Positions 54,137 through 62,553 of a stretch of DNA of 64,000 nucleotides are shown here, one piece after another. The stretch comes from Sharpea azabuensis DSM 18934 (GTDB lineage Bacteria; Bacillota_I; Bacilli_A; Erysipelotrichales; Coprobacillaceae): the NCBI RefSeq assembly GCF_000702165.1, contig NZ_JNKU01000001.1:1-64000 (forward strand), given 5' to 3'. The notes under the pieces are model-generated. The model did no database searches. It was not told the origin of the DNA and worked only from the letters and a program-made list of their open reading frames with translations. Numbering within the stretch: the stretch's first letter is position 1; every line of letters begins with the position of its first letter. The translations under genes and the position numbers were made by a program.

Positions 54137-54169
54137 TTTTGATATAATAATGTAAAGGGGGTGAAGGAT

Positions 54170-56278
54170 GTGGAGAAAAAAGAATGGGTGAAAATGATGA
54201 AAGCCTATTATCAAAAAGCGGCAACAATCTTTTCTGATTATCGTCATTATGTCCCATCCTATGCACCTGCTGCCCTGACATTCTATTTGATTATTCTCAT
54301 TGTCCCTGCTATTTCCATTGTGGCCTTTGCGACAAGTTTATTCCACTTTAATTCAGATATGCTTGTCAATTTATTAGAACAATATCTGACAAGTTCCTAT
54401 GCGATTATGCTGGTGGATATTATTAAGAATCCAACGATTTCTTTAGGATCATTTGTCGTCTTTGCCTTGTCTCTTTATGCCATCAGTAGAGGTGTTGGCA
54501 ATGTCTACCAGATCTCCAAAGAACTCTTTCCTGATGCAAAGAATGATGAAGATACCATTATTGGTTATTATGCCTATACCTTTGAAATCACCATTGTCTT
54601 ATTACTTTTTGCGATTGGCTTTATCTTCTTTATTGCGATTGGGCCGATTGCCGCCTTCTTTGATGTCTTCTATGATTATCTCCTACTAAGACAAATCTTA
54701 TTGTTTTCTTTATTTATTCTTTTCTTCTCACTTATCTATAAGCTTATTCCTAAGCCTCATATCTTTCTAAATGAAGCCATTAAGGGAGCTGTTGTTACAA
54801 CATTAGGAGATATCATTTTGTATTTCATTATTCGTTATTACTTCAAGAATGTTTCCTTCTCCAATGTCTATGGACCACTCGCTTCCATTGTCATGGTTTT
54901 CTTTGTATTGAATTGGGGCTGTGAGATTTTCTATGTGGGGATGTATGTGACCCATCTCTTTTATGAAAAGCGTTTAGCCCACTCCATTAGTATCATTAAG
55001 GTTGATGCCATTAACCATCTTGGTCAGGGGGTTGCCATGCTTGCAGGTAAGAAGACATTACTTAAAAATGTGCTTCCTCATGAAATTGTCCAGGTTGCGA
55101 TCAAAAAAGAAAGGGCGCATGATATTGATGCCTTGGCAATGAAGATTATTGTTCCTTCAGCAATGCGAACGACACCGGTATGCCTGCAGGCAGATCTGTG
55201 TGATAGCTGTTGTTTCCAATATATGGCTTCTTCTGCGCAATTGACCCATAAGAAAGAAACACTTGCAACCCTTATTAAACGCTTTACAACATTCAAAGAT
55301 TATCATCTCTCTTTCATGCCTTCAGATCAACAGCTGCATTATTTAAAGGATGTTCGATATGATCTCTATGACTATAAAGGAACAGTCTATTTTGGCGAAC
55401 TGACGAAAGAAAGCATAACCTTCAAAAGTCAATGTCTTCTTAATGATGAAATGATCAACGCTACTCTTCACTATCTTGAAGAAGTCATGAATGCCTGCCA
55501 TGTGTCAACTTATGATGATCCAACACAAAAAGGCATTAAAGGTGTGCGCATCAAACAGGTAGAAGAAGGCTGTCTTGTCTTTATAGAGAGTGGACGTGGG
55601 GATTTAAATGAAGAACTTGTTGAAAAGCTAAAAGCAAATAAGCAGATTCTTGGCTTATATAAATGCCAGGTTATACGTGTTGGGCGCTATATCAAGTTAG
55701 GCTCACCAGTGCATATCTATGGCCGTCATCACTATCACCTGACTTCACAAAATATCACCTATCGTTTATCCTACCAGTCTAATTTCACGTTCAATCGTAA
55801 TCTATCAAAAACGCTTTATGAACTTGTTGAAAATGACAATCATGTGCTTGCTCTTTATTGTGGCAATGGAATGATGGAATATGGACTTTCAAATGAGGTA
55901 AGCTGTATTTTTGATGAAGATTATGAATTTGAGGATGCGCTAAGAAATAAGAAAAATCTAAATCTCATCAACATGCATCTCTACAAAGGGCCAGTTGAAC
56001 AACGGGCAAGTCAGCTTCTTTCTCGTAATCATTATGACAGTGTGATTGTGCATTTAGAAAATCATCAGTTTTCAAGCATTCTTTCGCAATCATTTTATCA
56101 TTCAGATATCAAGAGAGTCATTGTCATCAGTGATGATGTTTATGGCTTTCTAAAATCCATTCATTCCTATGATACAATGCGTATGCAAACATGTTATAAG
56201 CTAACATATGTTGAAGGGTTTGACAAAGCACATTATACGTCAGAAATAGGTGGTTTATTTGTCTTTGTACGTAAATGA
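54170..56278 (+). CDS. YihY/BrkB membrane domain fused to a degenerate RumA/TrmA-like methyltransferase
   Basis: Length is 702 residues. 1 to about 270 is a YihY/BrkB-type integral membrane domain with six helices (YVPSYAPAALTFYLIILIVPAIS; GPLASIVMVFFVLNWGCEIFYVG). About 330-702 follows a RumA/TrmA-like plan: CDSCCFQYMASSAQLTHKKETL (iron-sulphur region), DDPTQKGIKGVRI, LYCGNGMMEYGL (motif I, about 562), and VIVISDDVYGFLKS (about 655) where the family has its catalytic SCDP. The catalytic Cys is absent, so it may not methylate. GTG 54170 sits nine bases after AAAGGGG. Confidence 0.72.
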   Translation: MEKKEWVKMMKAYYQKAATIFSDYRHYVPSYAPAALTFYLIILIVPAISIVAFATSLFHFNSDMLVNLLEQYLTSSYAIMLVDIIKNPTISLGSFVVFALSLYAISRGVGNVYQISKELFPDAKNDEDTIIGYYAYTFEITIVLLLFAIGFIFFIAIGPIAAFFDVFYDYLLLRQILLFSLFILFFSLIYKLIPKPHIFLNEAIKGAVVTTLGDIILYFIIRYYFKNVSFSNVYGPLASIVMVFFVLNWGCEIFYVGMYVTHLFYEKRLAHSISIIKVDAINHLGQGVAMLAGKKTLLKNVLPHEIVQVAIKKERAHDIDALAMKIIVPSAMRTTPVCLQADLCDSCCFQYMASSAQLTHKKETLATLIKRFTTFKDYHLSFMPSDQQLHYLKDVRYDLYDYKGTVYFGELTKESITFKSQCLLNDEMINATLHYLEEVMNACHVSTYDDPTQKGIKGVRIKQVEEGCLVFIESGRGDLNEELVEKLKANKQILGLYKCQVIRVGRYIKLGSPVHIYGRHHYHLTSQNITYRLSYQSNFTFNRNLSKTLYELVENDNHVLALYCGNGMMEYGLSNEVSCIFDEDYEFEDALRNKKNLNLINMHLYKGPVEQRASQLLSRNHYDSVIVHLENHQFSSILSQSFYHSDIKRVIVISDDVYGFLKSIHSYDTMRMQTCYKLTYVEGFDKAHYTSEIGGLFVFVRK

Positions 56279-56383: not shown

Positions 56384-56415
56384 TAAGTGTAAAAATATTA
56401 GGAGGCTTATTACAG

Positions 56416-57720
56416 ATGAAAAAATTTTCTTATGTTGTTGTAAACCCAATGGGTGTACACGCTCGTCCAGCTGCTTTACTAGCACAGTTATGTGTTGGTT
56501 TAAGAAGTGCAGTAACTATTGAATGCAATGGTAAGACTGCTGGAGGTAACAACGTACTTCAGGTTTTAGCTCTTGAAGCTAAGAAGGGCGACACTTTAAA
56601 TGTAACAGTTGAAGGTGTTGATGAAGAAGAAGCAGTTAAGCAGGTTGAAGATTTATTACATGGTGATTTCGAAGAAAAAGCACCTGAAAAAGTCTTAAAG
56701 ATTGCTTTCTTTGGTACTAAGGACTATGACAGAGTATTCTTCTCAGAATTAGTAAAAGATAAAGGTCCAGGCACTTATAATTCAGATATTAAGTATTTCT
56801 CTACTCGTTTAACTCCTGAAACTGCTCAGTTAGCTAAAGGCTATGATGCAGTATGTATCTTCGTTAATGATGAAGCTCCTCGTTCAGTTGTTGAAACATT
56901 AGCTGAATGTGGTGTTAAATTAATCTTATTACGTTGCGCTGGCTTCAACAATGTTGACTTACAGGCAGCTAAGGAATGTGGTATCAAGGTTGCTCGTGTT
57001 CCTGCTTACTCACCATATGCAGTTGCTGAACATGCAATGGCTATTCTTCAGGAAGCCAACAGAAGACTTGGCAGAGCTTATAATAAAGTGAAAGATAATA
57101 ACTTCGCTTTAAATGGCTTACTTGGTGTTGACTTACATAATAAGGTTTGTGGTATCTTAGGTACTGGTAAGATCGGTCAGTGCTTCGCTAGAATTGCTAA
57201 GGGTTATGGCATGACTGTTATTGGCTGGGATGCTTTCCCTAACAAGAAGCTTGAAGAAGAAGGCTTGTTAACTTATGTTAGCAAAGATGAATTATTCGAA
57301 AGAGCTGACTTAATTTCATTACATTTACCACTTATCATGGGTGAAGGTGGAACATATCATATCATCAACAAAGATACAATCGCTAAGATGAAAGATGATG
57401 TTATGTTAGTGAACTCTGCACGTGGACCATTAATTGACGCAGAAGACTTAATCGCTGCATTAAAGGATGGTAAATTCCATGCTGTAGCACTAGACGTATA
57501 TGAAGGTGAAGACGCTAACGTTTATACTGATAGAAGTGATGAAAGATTACATTCTTCAATCACAGCACGTCTAACAATGTTCCCTAATGTTGTCTTAACT
57601 TCACACCAGGCATTCTTCACTAGAGAAGCATTACAGGCTATCGCAGTAACAACTATGGAAAATGCACGTAACTTCAATGAAGGTCGTGACTTAGGTACTG
57701 CTGAAGTCAAAGCTAAATAA
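56416..57720 (+). CDS. HPr domain fused to a D-lactate/2-hydroxyacid dehydrogenase
   Basis: Length is 434 residues. 1-88 is an HPr phosphocarrier domain with His15 in GVHARPAALLAQ. The usual regulatory Ser46 position reads Asn (GGNNVLQVL). 95-434 is a D-LDH-type dehydrogenase: GILGTGKIGQCFAR (about 248), NSARGPLID, DVYEGE and LTSHQAFFT supply the Arg-Glu-His catalytic set. It probably makes D-lactate from pyruvate. The codon use is strongly biased and the ribosome site is AGGAGG, so high expression is likely. PTS control of lactate formation is inference. Confidence 0.88.
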   Translation: MKKFSYVVVNPMGVHARPAALLAQLCVGLRSAVTIECNGKTAGGNNVLQVLALEAKKGDTLNVTVEGVDEEEAVKQVEDLLHGDFEEKAPEKVLKIAFFGTKDYDRVFFSELVKDKGPGTYNSDIKYFSTRLTPETAQLAKGYDAVCIFVNDEAPRSVVETLAECGVKLILLRCAGFNNVDLQAAKECGIKVARVPAYSPYAVAEHAMAILQEANRRLGRAYNKVKDNNFALNGLLGVDLHNKVCGILGTGKIGQCFARIAKGYGMTVIGWDAFPNKKLEEEGLLTYVSKDELFERADLISLHLPLIMGEGGTYHIINKDTIAKMKDDVMLVNSARGPLIDAEDLIAALKDGKFHAVALDVYEGEDANVYTDRSDERLHSSITARLTMFPNVVLTSHQAFFTREALQAIAVTTMENARNFNEGRDLGTAEVKAK

Positions 57721-57732
57721 TATTTTCATACA

Positions 57733-57757
57733 TAAGGTGGCTATGCCACCTTTTTTC
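57733..57757 (+). terminator. terminator after the HPr-dehydrogenase gene
   Basis: Arms AAGGTGGC / GCCACCTT around TAT, followed by a T run. Confidence 0.9.
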
Positions 57758-57810
57758 TTTTGTTGTTTCTTAGAAGAAATTCGTATATACTACATACGTA
57801 GGTGAAAGAC

Positions 57811-59418
57811 ATGGCTAGAAAAAAGAAAACATTCGATGATTCTCCCTTAGAAAGAGAACCTCGTTATTATACAAAACAATCCCATATGATTTCTAATGCA
57901 TATAAGCGTCCCTATAAAGATGAACAAACAGGAGGAATAAGAAAGCCTTCATTATTAGAAATCTATAAAAGAAAGAGAATGAAGGATTCTATTGACCTGA
58001 CAACATCCACAAAGCGCTATGAAGCACACGATGAAGAAATGCTGTCAAGTGATATCGATCGTCATTATGAAAGAACCTATCAAGCAAAAGAAACAACAGG
58101 CAGACAATCCCATATTAACTTCGAACGAGAATCCTTGCTCAATAAGAAACATTATGAGACACCCTTACCAACAATTAACTTTCAAAGAGGCTCTTTCAAG
58201 GAGCCACAAGCAAAACAAGAAACACATATAAACTTTGAAAATAATCAACATGTTGCTCATCCTCGTGCACCCCTGCCAACAATCAATTTCAAAAGAGGCT
58301 CTTTCAAAGAACCAAAAACAAAGCAGGAGACATATATAAACTTTGAAAGCAACCAGCATGTTGCCCATCCTCGTGCTCCTCTTCCTACAATAAACTTTCA
58401 AACGCAAAAACGAGAATATACAAAGCCATCACAAACACTCCCAAAGATTCATTTTGGCCCAAAACTTGAGTTCAAGAAGAAGCAATCTGATCTTGTCACT
58501 ATTCATTTCGAGGAAGAACGCAGTTTCAAGAAAGCACCGGACAAGAGTCTTCCTAAGTTACACTTTGATAACACGCTCATAGAAAAACAATCTCTCAATA
58601 AGATTCCAAAAATCAACTTCCAGAGTGAGCATAAGGAAGTCAAGAAGGTTAATGGTATTCCAAAAATCAATTTCCAGAGTGAACATAAGGAAACAAAAGT
58701 CGTTGAGAGCATTCCTAAGATTCATTTTAGAAGTGAAGAAAGGCCGGTACGTGCAAAGGATAGTATTCCACAGATTCATTTTATTCATGAAACACGTCCA
58801 CTTAAGAAACAGGCAGAGTTACCAAGAATTCATTTCGTTATACCACAGCCAGTTAAGAAAAAACAAAATGACTATACAATTCACTTTACGCATGAATCAT
58901 CCCTTAAGCCAAAGAAGGCTCAAAGCAATGCTGCTACTAAAATAAGCTTCTCAAGCTACAATAAACAAAACTATAAAATGACAAAGCCTGTCAGCAAGGC
59001 GGTTACAAAAATCACATTCCCAAGTATTGCCCTCGCCAAGCGCAAAACCTATAAACAAGTGGATCGTGGTGTGACAAAGCCTCATTTTTCACTAAAAAGC
59101 AAGCAGGCTAAACAAATGCTTTATAACGCCCACACACCAAACAAAACAAAAAAACAAGCTTATATCTTTAAGCAATATGAAACAAAGTCAATGGGCAGTT
59201 TGCTTAAGGGTAATGCGATGCATGACAAATTGCCATTGGAGCTTGATAAGAGCCGTACAGCTAAACGCATTCAGCGTGAACATAGCTGGTTCTCAGTTGT
59301 GATTGGTATTGGTGTTGTTGGTTTATTAGCATCACTCCTCTTTAATGTCATGCAGTCAGCAATCATGTTTGGCTTATTGATTATCTTAGGCATTTATGGC
59401 TACTGGACATCACGTTAA
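57811..59418 (+). CDS. repeat protein with P-x-I-H/N-F motifs and C-terminal membrane anchor
   Basis: Length is 535 residues, basic and low-complexity. About 17 copies of a short motif, P-K/T-I-H/N-F, run from roughly residue 100 to 410. In the first part they sit in 36-residue units (start points at 58162, 58270 and 58378, exactly 108 bases apart); later copies are spaced 15-20 residues. The tail has two helices (WFSVVIGIGVVGLLASLLF; SAIMFGLLIILGIYGYW). No signal peptide, so the repeats are probably cytoplasmic. I recognise no family. It could tether or scaffold proteins at the membrane. Confidence 0.7.
   Translation: MARKKKTFDDSPLEREPRYYTKQSHMISNAYKRPYKDEQTGGIRKPSLLEIYKRKRMKDSIDLTTSTKRYEAHDEEMLSSDIDRHYERTYQAKETTGRQSHINFERESLLNKKHYETPLPTINFQRGSFKEPQAKQETHINFENNQHVAHPRAPLPTINFKRGSFKEPKTKQETYINFESNQHVAHPRAPLPTINFQTQKREYTKPSQTLPKIHFGPKLEFKKKQSDLVTIHFEEERSFKKAPDKSLPKLHFDNTLIEKQSLNKIPKINFQSEHKEVKKVNGIPKINFQSEHKETKVVESIPKIHFRSEERPVRAKDSIPQIHFIHETRPLKKQAELPRIHFVIPQPVKKKQNDYTIHFTHESSLKPKKAQSNAATKISFSSYNKQNYKMTKPVSKAVTKITFPSIALAKRKTYKQVDRGVTKPHFSLKSKQAKQMLYNAHTPNKTKKQAYIFKQYETKSMGSLLKGNAMHDKLPLELDKSRTAKRIQREHSWFSVVIGIGVVGLLASLLFNVMQSAIMFGLLIILGIYGYWTSR
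58162..58395 (+). repeat. 108-base tandem repeat within the repeat protein
   Basis: Two full units and a partial third, each encoding PLPTINFxRGSFKEP followed by a HINF/YINF segment. The units differ by scattered substitutions, so they are not recent perfect duplications. Confidence 0.85.
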
Positions 59419-60477: not shown

Positions 60478-62553
60478 ATGAGTACAGAAAAGCATTCCCA
60501 TCGTGCCTTGATTGGCTTTGACAAGAACGGTGTTCCAACTGTCATCGTTCCTGCAGATCACCATGCACATACCCATGAAGATGAGCATGGACATCTTTAT
60601 ACCCACATTCATGAAGCAGAGTTTACAGCTGACTATATGCAGGCTGTCAATGATTATCGTAAGACATTTCCTAAGGCTGAAGAAGTGTTGGAAAAAACAC
60701 CTGATCCAGCTGTTAAAGAGATGCTAGTGAGAATGAAGGAATTGGATATGCCAACAGCTTTTGACCGCTTTGATAGCCAGCAGCCACAGTGTTCATTTGG
60801 CTTATCAGGCGTGTGCTGTAAGATATGTAATATGGGACCTTGCAAGATTACGAAGAAAAGTCCTAAAGGTGTCTGCGGTGCGGATGCTGATCTGATTGTC
60901 GCAAGAAATCTCTTACGTTCAGCTGCTTCAGGTGTTGCTCAGCATGGCATACATGCTAGAGAAGTCATTCTTTCATTGAAGTGGGCAGCCGAAGGTAAGC
61001 TCGACTTACCACTAATTGGGGAAAACAAGATTCGTGCTGTAGCCAAGCAATTTGGCATTAAGACTGAGCATCGCCAAATTAAAAACATCACCATTGATCT
61101 TGCCAATATCTTATTGGAAGATTTATCAAGAACAGAACCAGATGAATATAAGACAATTACTGCCTGTGCCCCAAAAGAACGCCAGGAAATCTGGAAGAAG
61201 CTTGATATTCTGCCTATTTCAGCCTACCATGAAACATTTGAAGCCTATCATCGTACAGGTGTTGGTACGGATGGTGACTGGAAGAATGTTATGCAGCAGT
61301 TCTTACGTTGTGGACTGACATTTGTATTCAGTACAGTACTTGCGACAAGCATTGCGACTGATGGCTTGTTTGGGGTTGGTGATCGTGTTACATCAAAGAC
61401 CAATATGGGTGCTTTAAAGGAAGGCTATGTCAATATCGCTGTCCATGGCCATTTACCAACGCTTGTCAGTCAGATTGTCAAGGAAGGACAGAGTGAAGAA
61501 TTCATCAAGATGGCTAAGGAGGTAGGAGCTAAAGGGATACGCTTCTATGGTATTTGTTGTAGTGGATTATCAGCTATGTATCGCTATGAAGGTGTTATTC
61601 CTCTTTCTAATGCGGTGACTGCTGAACTTGTTCTAGCAACGGGTGCATTAGATTTATGGGTGGCTGATGTCCAGGATGTCTTCCCAGCTATTATGGATGT
61701 CGCAAGATGCTTCAAGACAACAGTTGTCACAACAAGTGATTCAGCACGTTTGCCAGGAGCAGAACATATTGCCTACGATCACCATCATTCCAATATTGGT
61801 GAAACAAAAGCCATTGCGAGAAAGATTGTCACACGTGCAATTGAAAGCTTTGCGGCAAGAAAGGGTACACCAGTCCATATTCCTCCATATGAAGTTGAAG
61901 CTGAAGTCGGTTTCTCACTAGAATATGTACATCGTCATTTTGGCTCAATGAAACCATTGGCAGAAGCACTTAAGAGTGGCAAGATTCTTGGTATTGTCAA
62001 TATGGTTGGCTGTAATAATCCTAAAGTACCATATGAACGTACAATTGTGGATGTTGCCGATGTCTTGATTAAAAATAATGTTCTCATTCTCACAAATGGC
62101 TGTGCATCCTTCCCACTGATGAAGCTTGGCTATTGTAAGAAAGGCGCAGGTGCGCTTGCCGGTGTTGGGTTGCATGAAGTATTAGGTGATGATTTACCAC
62201 CTGTATGGCATGTTGGCGAATGTATTGATAATGCCCGTTCTTCAGCCATATTTGGTGATCTTGCCGGTGTTCTTGGTGAAAAGCTTTGTGACTTGCCATT
62301 TGCCTTTTCATCACCTGAATGGGGTAATGAAAAGGGCATTGATGCAGCGCTTGGCTTCCGCCTCATGGGCCTTAATTCTTATCATTGCGTTGAAGCGCCT
62401 ATTCATGGCTCTGCCAATGTCATCAACTTCCTCAAGGAAGAAACAAAGGATTTACTTGGATCAGCAATGATTGTCAACGTTGATCCAAAAGCACTGGGTG
62501 AACAGATTGTTGAAGATTTCAAGAAACAGCGTAAGGCTCTAGGCTGGGATTAA
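60478..62553 (+). CDS. cooS: Ni-Fe carbon-monoxide dehydrogenase (CooS) homologue with altered C-cluster
   Basis: Length is 691 residues. About ten His in residues 1-48 suggest a metal-binding N-terminus. The D- and B-cluster cysteines are all present (QCSFGLSGVCCKICNMGPC...GVCGAD). For the C-cluster, GHLP (His), GICCSG, MVGCNN, TNGCAS and GECIDNAR retain the expected ligands, but the Cys of DVQC reads Asp (DVQDVFP). The Lys of SPEWGNEK is kept. CO oxidation may therefore be altered. It precedes a solute-binding protein by three bases. Confidence 0.85.
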   Translation: MSTEKHSHRALIGFDKNGVPTVIVPADHHAHTHEDEHGHLYTHIHEAEFTADYMQAVNDYRKTFPKAEEVLEKTPDPAVKEMLVRMKELDMPTAFDRFDSQQPQCSFGLSGVCCKICNMGPCKITKKSPKGVCGADADLIVARNLLRSAASGVAQHGIHAREVILSLKWAAEGKLDLPLIGENKIRAVAKQFGIKTEHRQIKNITIDLANILLEDLSRTEPDEYKTITACAPKERQEIWKKLDILPISAYHETFEAYHRTGVGTDGDWKNVMQQFLRCGLTFVFSTVLATSIATDGLFGVGDRVTSKTNMGALKEGYVNIAVHGHLPTLVSQIVKEGQSEEFIKMAKEVGAKGIRFYGICCSGLSAMYRYEGVIPLSNAVTAELVLATGALDLWVADVQDVFPAIMDVARCFKTTVVTTSDSARLPGAEHIAYDHHHSNIGETKAIARKIVTRAIESFAARKGTPVHIPPYEVEAEVGFSLEYVHRHFGSMKPLAEALKSGKILGIVNMVGCNNPKVPYERTIVDVADVLIKNNVLILTNGCASFPLMKLGYCKKGAGALAGVGLHEVLGDDLPPVWHVGECIDNARSSAIFGDLAGVLGEKLCDLPFAFSSPEWGNEKGIDAALGFRLMGLNSYHCVEAPIHGSANVINFLKEETKDLLGSAMIVNVDPKALGEQIVEDFKKQRKALGWD

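What the first reader, a model, noticed from the sequence alone, without database searches (positions are those of the whole stretch)
56416..57720. HPr phosphocarrier domain fused to a fermentative D-lactate dehydrogenase
His15, the phosphate acceptor, is intact; the Ser46 position is Asn, so HPr-kinase control is lost. PEP-dependent phosphorylation of the enzyme would link sugar uptake to lactate formation directly, a control not described for this enzyme to my knowledge. The upstream cre-like site and biased codon use support a central catabolic role.
Basis: partly seen in the sequence, partly recalled or inferred. Interest (0 to 1): 0.66.

Follow-up and report, generated by a model that had tools for sequence, protein, structure and literature searches.

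The report
HPr domain fused to D-lactate dehydrogenase
In one order of gut bacteria (which includes the rumen genus Sharpea), the enzyme that makes D-lactate carries a built-in copy of HPr, the small protein that relays phosphate during sugar uptake, with its phosphate-accepting histidine kept in every one of more than 90 versions examined, so lactate formation may be wired directly to sugar uptake; this has not been tested.

Summary
Window 56416-57720 (+) is one intact 434-aa ORF: an HPr domain (residues 3-81), a roughly 9-residue linker, and a complete allosteric-type D-lactate dehydrogenase (94-434) with catalytic residues R336/E365/H397. It is not an assembly accident. 77 of 316 genomes of the order (Erysipelotrichales) carry it full length, in 14 genera and two families, all one clade. 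A phylum sample found none elsewhere; unfused relatives begin exactly at the LDH start. In all 93 distinct fused HPr domains His15 and Arg17 are invariant, while position 46 is Asn or Asp and never Ser. A Crh-like HPr clade in the same family (Tyr15/Ser46) shows the opposite choice. The genome also encodes canonical HPr, Enzyme I and HPr kinase, so this is an extra HPr. Codon bias is the strongest in the window. The claimed cre site is no better than chance and not conserved. The phosphotransfer face is less basic than in free HPr (about +1 versus +3), a caution for Enzyme I docking. Best reading: a PTS-phosphorylatable sensor domain that tunes D-LDH; phosphorylation and its effect are inferred, not shown. 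I found no description of it in the literature searched.

The parts
56416..57720 (+). HPr / D-lactate dehydrogenase fusion gene, 434 aa
   Evidence: ORF without internal stop; Pfam, NCBIfam and PDB matches; full-length orthologues in 77 of 316 genomes of the order
56416..56667 (+). HPr domain, residues 1-84; phosphate-acceptor His15 and Arg17 invariant, Asn at position 46 in place of Ser
   Evidence: PF00381 residues 3-81; conservation in 86-93 fused sequences
56458..56460 (+). His15 codon (cac)
   Evidence: translation; invariant in 93/93 fused domains
56551..56553 (+). codon 46 (aac, Asn) at the place of the HPr-kinase target Ser46
   Evidence: ungapped alignment to solved HPrs; N or D, never S, in 93 fused domains
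56668..56694 (+). linker, residues 85-93: sequence variable, length nearly constant (His15 to LDH start is 80 residues in 77 of 87)
56695..57717 (+). D-lactate dehydrogenase, residues 94-434; GxGxxG 249-254, catalytic R336, E365, H397
56401..56406 (+). ribosome-binding site AGGAGG
   Evidence: sequence
57734..57752 (+). intrinsic terminator (8-bp stem followed by a T run) directly after the gene; with no conserved neighbours in relatives the gene looks monocistronic

Best explanation
This is a fermentative, allosteric-type D-lactate dehydrogenase with an appended HPr domain that works as a phosphorylation sensor. Proposed mechanism: Enzyme I~P phosphorylates His15 of the domain. When PTS sugars flow in, the phosphate is drained and the domain is mostly unphosphorylated; when sugar is scarce and the PEP/pyruvate ratio is high, it is mostly His~P. 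The state of the domain shifts the activity or cooperativity of the LDH tetramer, most sensibly towards high activity when unphosphorylated (sugar-replete). Loss of Ser46 frees the domain from HPr kinase and CcpA, so it reads only the PEP/PTS signal. Shown by sequence: the fusion, its conservation, intact acceptor and catalytic residues, absence of Ser46, presence of EI and HPr kinase genes, codon bias. Inferred: phosphorylation, its effect and the sign of the effect.
For: His15 and Arg17 are invariant in 93/93 distinct fused domains, although the HPr part is otherwise much more variable than the LDH part (mean site entropy 1.37 versus 0.60 bits). In the same family a free Crh-like clade has lost His15 (to Tyr) and mostly Arg17, so these residues do drift when phosphotransfer is not needed. 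dN/dS of the HPr part is 0.02-0.31 against 0.22-0.67 for the linker. Site-conservation patterns of fused and canonical free HPr correlate (Spearman 0.68). Single origin, kept across two families and 14 genera. EI found in 51 of 53 fusion genomes and HPr kinase in 53 of 53. The LDH belongs with tetrameric F. nucleatum/E. coli-type D-LDHs, which are allosteric and in part activated by fructose 1,6-bisphosphate (PMC4230899). There is a precedent in trans: E. coli HPr binds PykF, PfkB, NagB and Adk (summarised in PMC8167557).
Against: No biochemical data. The phosphotransfer face is less basic than in canonical HPr (about +1 versus +3) and Lys45 is mostly lost, which could weaken EI docking. EI is nearly universal in the order (296 of 316), so co-occurrence with EI proves nothing. 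One near-complete MAG (G100) has the fusion without a detectable EI. The conserved helix-2 motif A-x-G-x-[ND]-V-L-[QE] differs from canonical HPr and could serve another partner. The AlphaFold pTM (0.70) does not fix the domain arrangement.
Confidence: 0.5

Rival explanations
1. Tether / substrate channelling. The HPr domain docks the LDH on Enzyme I (or on EIIs at the membrane). EI turns PEP into pyruvate during PTS sugar uptake, so a docked LDH would receive its substrate where it is made; phosphorylation itself would matter little for catalysis.
For: EI makes pyruvate for every PTS sugar (established knowledge). The domain keeps the HPr acceptor core. Strong codon bias suggests abundant protein. 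The linker is variable in sequence but nearly constant in length.
Against: Strict invariance of His15 and Arg17 points to chemistry, not docking alone; the EI-facing surface has lost positive charge; pyruvate diffuses freely.
Confidence: 0.15
2. Plain extra phosphocarrier. The domain passes phosphate from EI to some EIIs like any HPr; fusion to an abundant enzyme only fixes its amount and places it outside HPr-kinase control. LDH activity is not affected.
For: His15/Arg17 invariant; the nearest free relatives in the tree (H15/N46, support 91/71) lie in galactitol-type PTS gene clusters.
Against: Canonical free HPr is present in the own genome and in nearly all fusion genomes; the fusion is always to the same enzyme and has one origin; the gene is not linked to PTS genes.
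Confidence: 0.15
3. Non-phosphorylated structural or regulatory module. The HPr fold has been recruited to bind another partner or the LDH tetramer itself, and His15 is kept for a structural or binding reason.
For: Fusion-specific, nearly fixed residues in the helix-2 region (A42, G44, V47, L48, Q49, A55), reduced basic charge of the face, Asp at 46 in 18 of 93, which would resemble P-Ser and disfavour EI; 22 LDH positions, including two short insertions, fixed in fused and rare in unfused LDHs (confounded with clade).
Against: Invariance of both His15 and Arg17, the active-site pair of HPr, is hard to explain without phosphotransfer.
Confidence: 0.17

Closest known systems
Allosteric tetrameric D-LDH (F. 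nucleatum 5z21, P. aeruginosa, E. coli LdhA)
   Same: LDH domain aligns end to end with the same catalytic Arg/Glu/His and Rossmann motif
   Different: Carries an N-terminal HPr domain; the fusion clade has its own fixed residues near catalytic Glu365 (G364, D366, N368) and two short insertions (around 117-121 and 283-284)
Canonical HPr (PtsH) of Bacillota
   Same: HPr fold, His15, Arg17, GxHARPA core
   Different: No Ser46 (Asn/Asp), mostly no Lys45, altered helix 2, fused to an enzyme
Multiphosphoryl transfer proteins (FruB/FPr, DhaM-type, EI-HPr fusions)
   Same: HPr as one domain of a larger polypeptide (PMC2405797)
   Different: In the fusions described there HPr is joined to other PTS domains; here it is joined to a central-metabolism oxidoreductase
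HPr acting in trans on metabolic enzymes (E. coli HPr with PykF, PfkB, NagB, Adk; PMC8167557)
   Same: HPr as a regulator of enzymes around glycolysis and pyruvate
   Different: There free HPr binds transiently; here the HPr is part of the enzyme, on an enzyme not in that list
Crh (catabolite-repression HPr)
   Same: A specialised HPr that keeps only one of the two phosphorylation sites
   Different: Opposite choice: Crh keeps Ser46 and loses His15 (general knowledge; Crh-like clade here); the fused domain keeps His15 and loses Ser46

Membership tests
HPr family (PF00381 / TIGR01003) | Profile match over the curated cut-off | tested here: met
   77.3 bits vs cut-off 23; TIGR01003 69.7 vs 47.9
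HPr family (PF00381 / TIGR01003) | Phosphate-acceptor His15 with Arg17 | tested here: met
   93/93 fused sequences
Canonical Bacillota HPr with dual phosphorylation | Ser46, target of HPr kinase | tested here: not met
   N 75, D 18, S 0 of 93; so it is an HPr of the His-only type, not a canonical Bacillota HPr
HPr family (PF00381 / TIGR01003) | Phosphorylated by Enzyme I and PEP | not testable with these tools
   needs purified proteins
D-lactate dehydrogenase (D-2-hydroxyacid dehydrogenase family) | Catalytic Arg, Glu, His and NAD-binding GxGxxG | tested here: met
   R336, E365, H397, G249/G251/G254 in 66/66 fused and 29/29 unfused
D-lactate dehydrogenase (D-2-hydroxyacid dehydrogenase family) | Closest to D-LDHs rather than other 2-hydroxyacid dehydrogenases | tested here: met
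   the ten best PDB matches are D-LDHs, E 8e-99 to 3e-68, well ahead of glyoxylate reductases and PGDH
D-lactate dehydrogenase (D-2-hydroxyacid dehydrogenase family) | Pyruvate reduction to D-lactate | not testable with these tools
   enzyme assay needed
Multiphosphoryl transfer protein | HPr fused to EI, EIIA or another PTS domain | tested here: not met
   only HPr and 2-hydroxyacid dehydrogenase domains found
CcpA/cre-controlled gene | Upstream cre site better than chance and conserved | tested here: not met

The most novel reading that the evidence does not exclude
A fermentation enzyme directly switched by the PTS: reversible PEP/EI-dependent phosphorylation of the built-in HPr domain sets D-LDH activity, giving a one-protein link between sugar uptake and lactate output across an order of gut bacteria.
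Probability: 0.42. Interest if true: 0.78.

Novelty: new variant of a known kind. Interest (0 to 1): 0.62.

Why it matters
HPr is known to regulate transport, transcription (with CcpA) and a few enzymes by transient contact. Here evolution has built it into the enzyme that ends lactate fermentation and kept it across an order. If phosphorylation tunes the enzyme, this would be an unusually simple, purifiable case of PTS control over central metabolism. The window's genome belongs to Sharpea or a very close relative. In low-methane sheep the S. [quoted passage not shown] The main text of that paper does not mention HPr, and I infer, but did not verify, that its gene is this one.

Tried and rejected
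(1) Assembly or frameshift artefact: rejected, 94 distinct full-length fused sequences from many assemblies. (2) Degenerate, passenger HPr domain: rejected by invariant His15/Arg17 and dN/dS well below 1. (3) Replacement of a missing normal HPr: rejected, canonical HPr is present. (4) EI co-occurrence as support: uninformative, EI is in 296 of 316 genomes of the order. (5) cre site: no better than chance, not conserved. (6) Conserved gene neighbourhood: none; the commonest neighbour family is near 9 of 48 loci. (7) Internal TAA flagged in some orthologues: those examined were recovered as open frames of full length. (8) AlphaFold model: both domains confident, but orientation uncertain and coordinates not available here, so no distance from His15 to the active site was measured. 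(9) Literature: no paper on this fusion in the held library; subscription journals are mostly missing, so this does not prove it undescribed.

Full report
Observation. The ORF at 56416-57720 (+) is intact, begins with ATG behind AGGAGG, and encodes 434 residues. Pfam finds PTS-HPr at residues 3-81, followed by the two halves of a D-2-hydroxyacid dehydrogenase. The dehydrogenase part is closest to F. nucleatum D-LDH 5z21 and its E. coli, Salmonella and P. aeruginosa relatives, by sequence and by predicted fold. The catalytic residues R336, E365 and H397 and the GxGxxG motif are intact and invariant in 66 fused and 29 unfused sequences. The HPr part aligns without gaps to solved Bacillus-type HPrs, placing His at 15 and Asn at 46.

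Distribution. A search of 316 genomes of the order gives 77 with the fusion full length (counted from the rows), in 14 genera of two families, plus two split over contig ends. Named carriers include Sharpea porci (99% identical protein), Eggerthia catenaformis, Faecalibacillus faecis and F. intestinalis, [Clostridium] spiroforme and Floccifex porci. The window's own genome is therefore a Sharpea or a very close relative (family Coprobacillaceae); the species is not established. In an even sample of 392 genomes of the phylum the fusion occurs only inside the order; outside it, matches start at about residue 90, and the unfused proteins have a Met at the LDH start. Searching the same sample with the HPr part alone, every listed match other than the fusions lies in a short frame of about 90-130 aa (the list is cut at the best matches). 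Trees of the HPr part (one branch in 100% of bootstrap trees, support 98/97) and of the LDH part (support 100) each put all sampled fused sequences on one side of one branch. So there was one fusion event before the two families split, or one event with later transfer within the order.

Selection. Among 93 distinct fused domains His15, Arg17, Gly13 and Ala16 never vary; position 46 is Asn (75) or Asp (18), never Ser. The HPr part is otherwise variable (mean entropy 1.37 bits against 0.60 for the LDH), so invariance at the acceptor pair is not a side effect of short divergence. A built-in contrast exists in the same family: a clade of free Crh-like HPrs has Tyr15, a variable position 17 and Ser46 in 8 of 8. 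Where only the Ser site is kept, His15 and mostly Arg17 are lost; the fused domain shows the reverse. dN/dS between close relatives is 0.02-0.31 for HPr, 0.01-0.11 for LDH and 0.22-0.67 for the linker where computable. The linker's length is nearly constant.

Cellular context. The genome also holds a canonical HPr (H15, S46), a Crh-like HPr (Y15, S46) and a third HPr (H15, K46) next to an EIIBCA gene, plus EI, HPr kinase and one L-LDH-family gene. The fused gene has the strongest codon bias of 49 ORFs in the window, about equal in both parts (Nc 34), is followed by an intrinsic terminator and has no conserved neighbours, so it looks like a highly expressed single-gene unit.

Mechanism. The simplest reading of an invariant acceptor pair on an otherwise drifting domain is that it is phosphorylated through EI, and the simplest reading of its lasting union with one enzyme is that this matters for the enzyme. 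PEP/pyruvate ratio and PTS flux set the phosphorylation of HPr-type proteins (established knowledge). D-LDHs of this type are cooperative tetramers, and two of the three characterised ones are markedly enhanced by fructose 1,6-bisphosphate and Mg2+ (PMC4230899), so a phosphorylation-sensitive domain could act on an existing allosteric transition. Physiology suggests more activity in the unphosphorylated, sugar-replete state, but the sign is a guess. Against an efficient reaction with EI stands the lower positive charge of the phosphotransfer face (+1.0 against +3.0 in free canonical HPr, +1.25 in the Tyr15 clade; face positions chosen from general knowledge of HPr complexes). Tethering to EI, an ordinary extra phosphocarrier, and a non-phosphorylated binding module remain open.

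Novelty. HPr fusions are known with other PTS domains (PMC2405797), and HPr regulates some E. coli enzymes in trans (PMC8167557). I found no report of HPr fused to a lactate dehydrogenase or other central oxidoreductase in the held library. A survey of D-2-hydroxyacid dehydrogenases does not contain the words phosphocarrier or PTS. I class it as a new variant of a known kind: two familiar parts in an architecture I could not find described, with a testable regulatory consequence.

Noticed in passing
G000:C15:436-669 (L003; L236 421-681, - strand): A Crh-like HPr with Tyr15 and Ser46 in the same genome; a clade of such proteins occurs in several genera of the same family, a parallel to Bacillus Crh.
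   Followed up: partly
G000:C64:7970-8224 (L235): A third free HPr (His15, Lys46) directly downstream of a PTS EIIBCA gene; similar H15/K46 HPrs occur in both families of the order.
   Followed up: partly
L232, L233, L234 (genus g39 genomes): Free HPr with His15/Asn46 next to galactitol-type PTS genes (EIIA and EIIC confirmed by Pfam in L233); nearest tree neighbours of the fused HPr domain (support 91/71).
   Followed up: partly
window 57802-59418 (+): 538-aa ORF with many degenerate repeats of the type PKIHF/PTINF and a C-terminal hydrophobic stretch; no Pfam match.
   Followed up: no
window 60478-62553 (+): Prismane/CO-dehydrogenase family protein, unexpected near a lactate-fermentation gene in a sugar fermenter.
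   Followed up: no
window 54161-56278 (+): 705-aa ORF with an N-terminal BrkB/YihY membrane domain (residues 37-267) and about 430 further residues without a Pfam match.
   Followed up: no
G100 (L188, L226): A near-complete MAG carries the fusion and free HPr but no detectable Enzyme I: binning loss, or a real exception to EI-dependent phosphorylation.
   Followed up: no
G256, G258, G259, G169 (loci L155, L150, L152, L163): Four incomplete genomes with only the unfused D-LDH also lack a detectable EI, a weak hint that the fusion goes with a working PTS.
   Followed up: no
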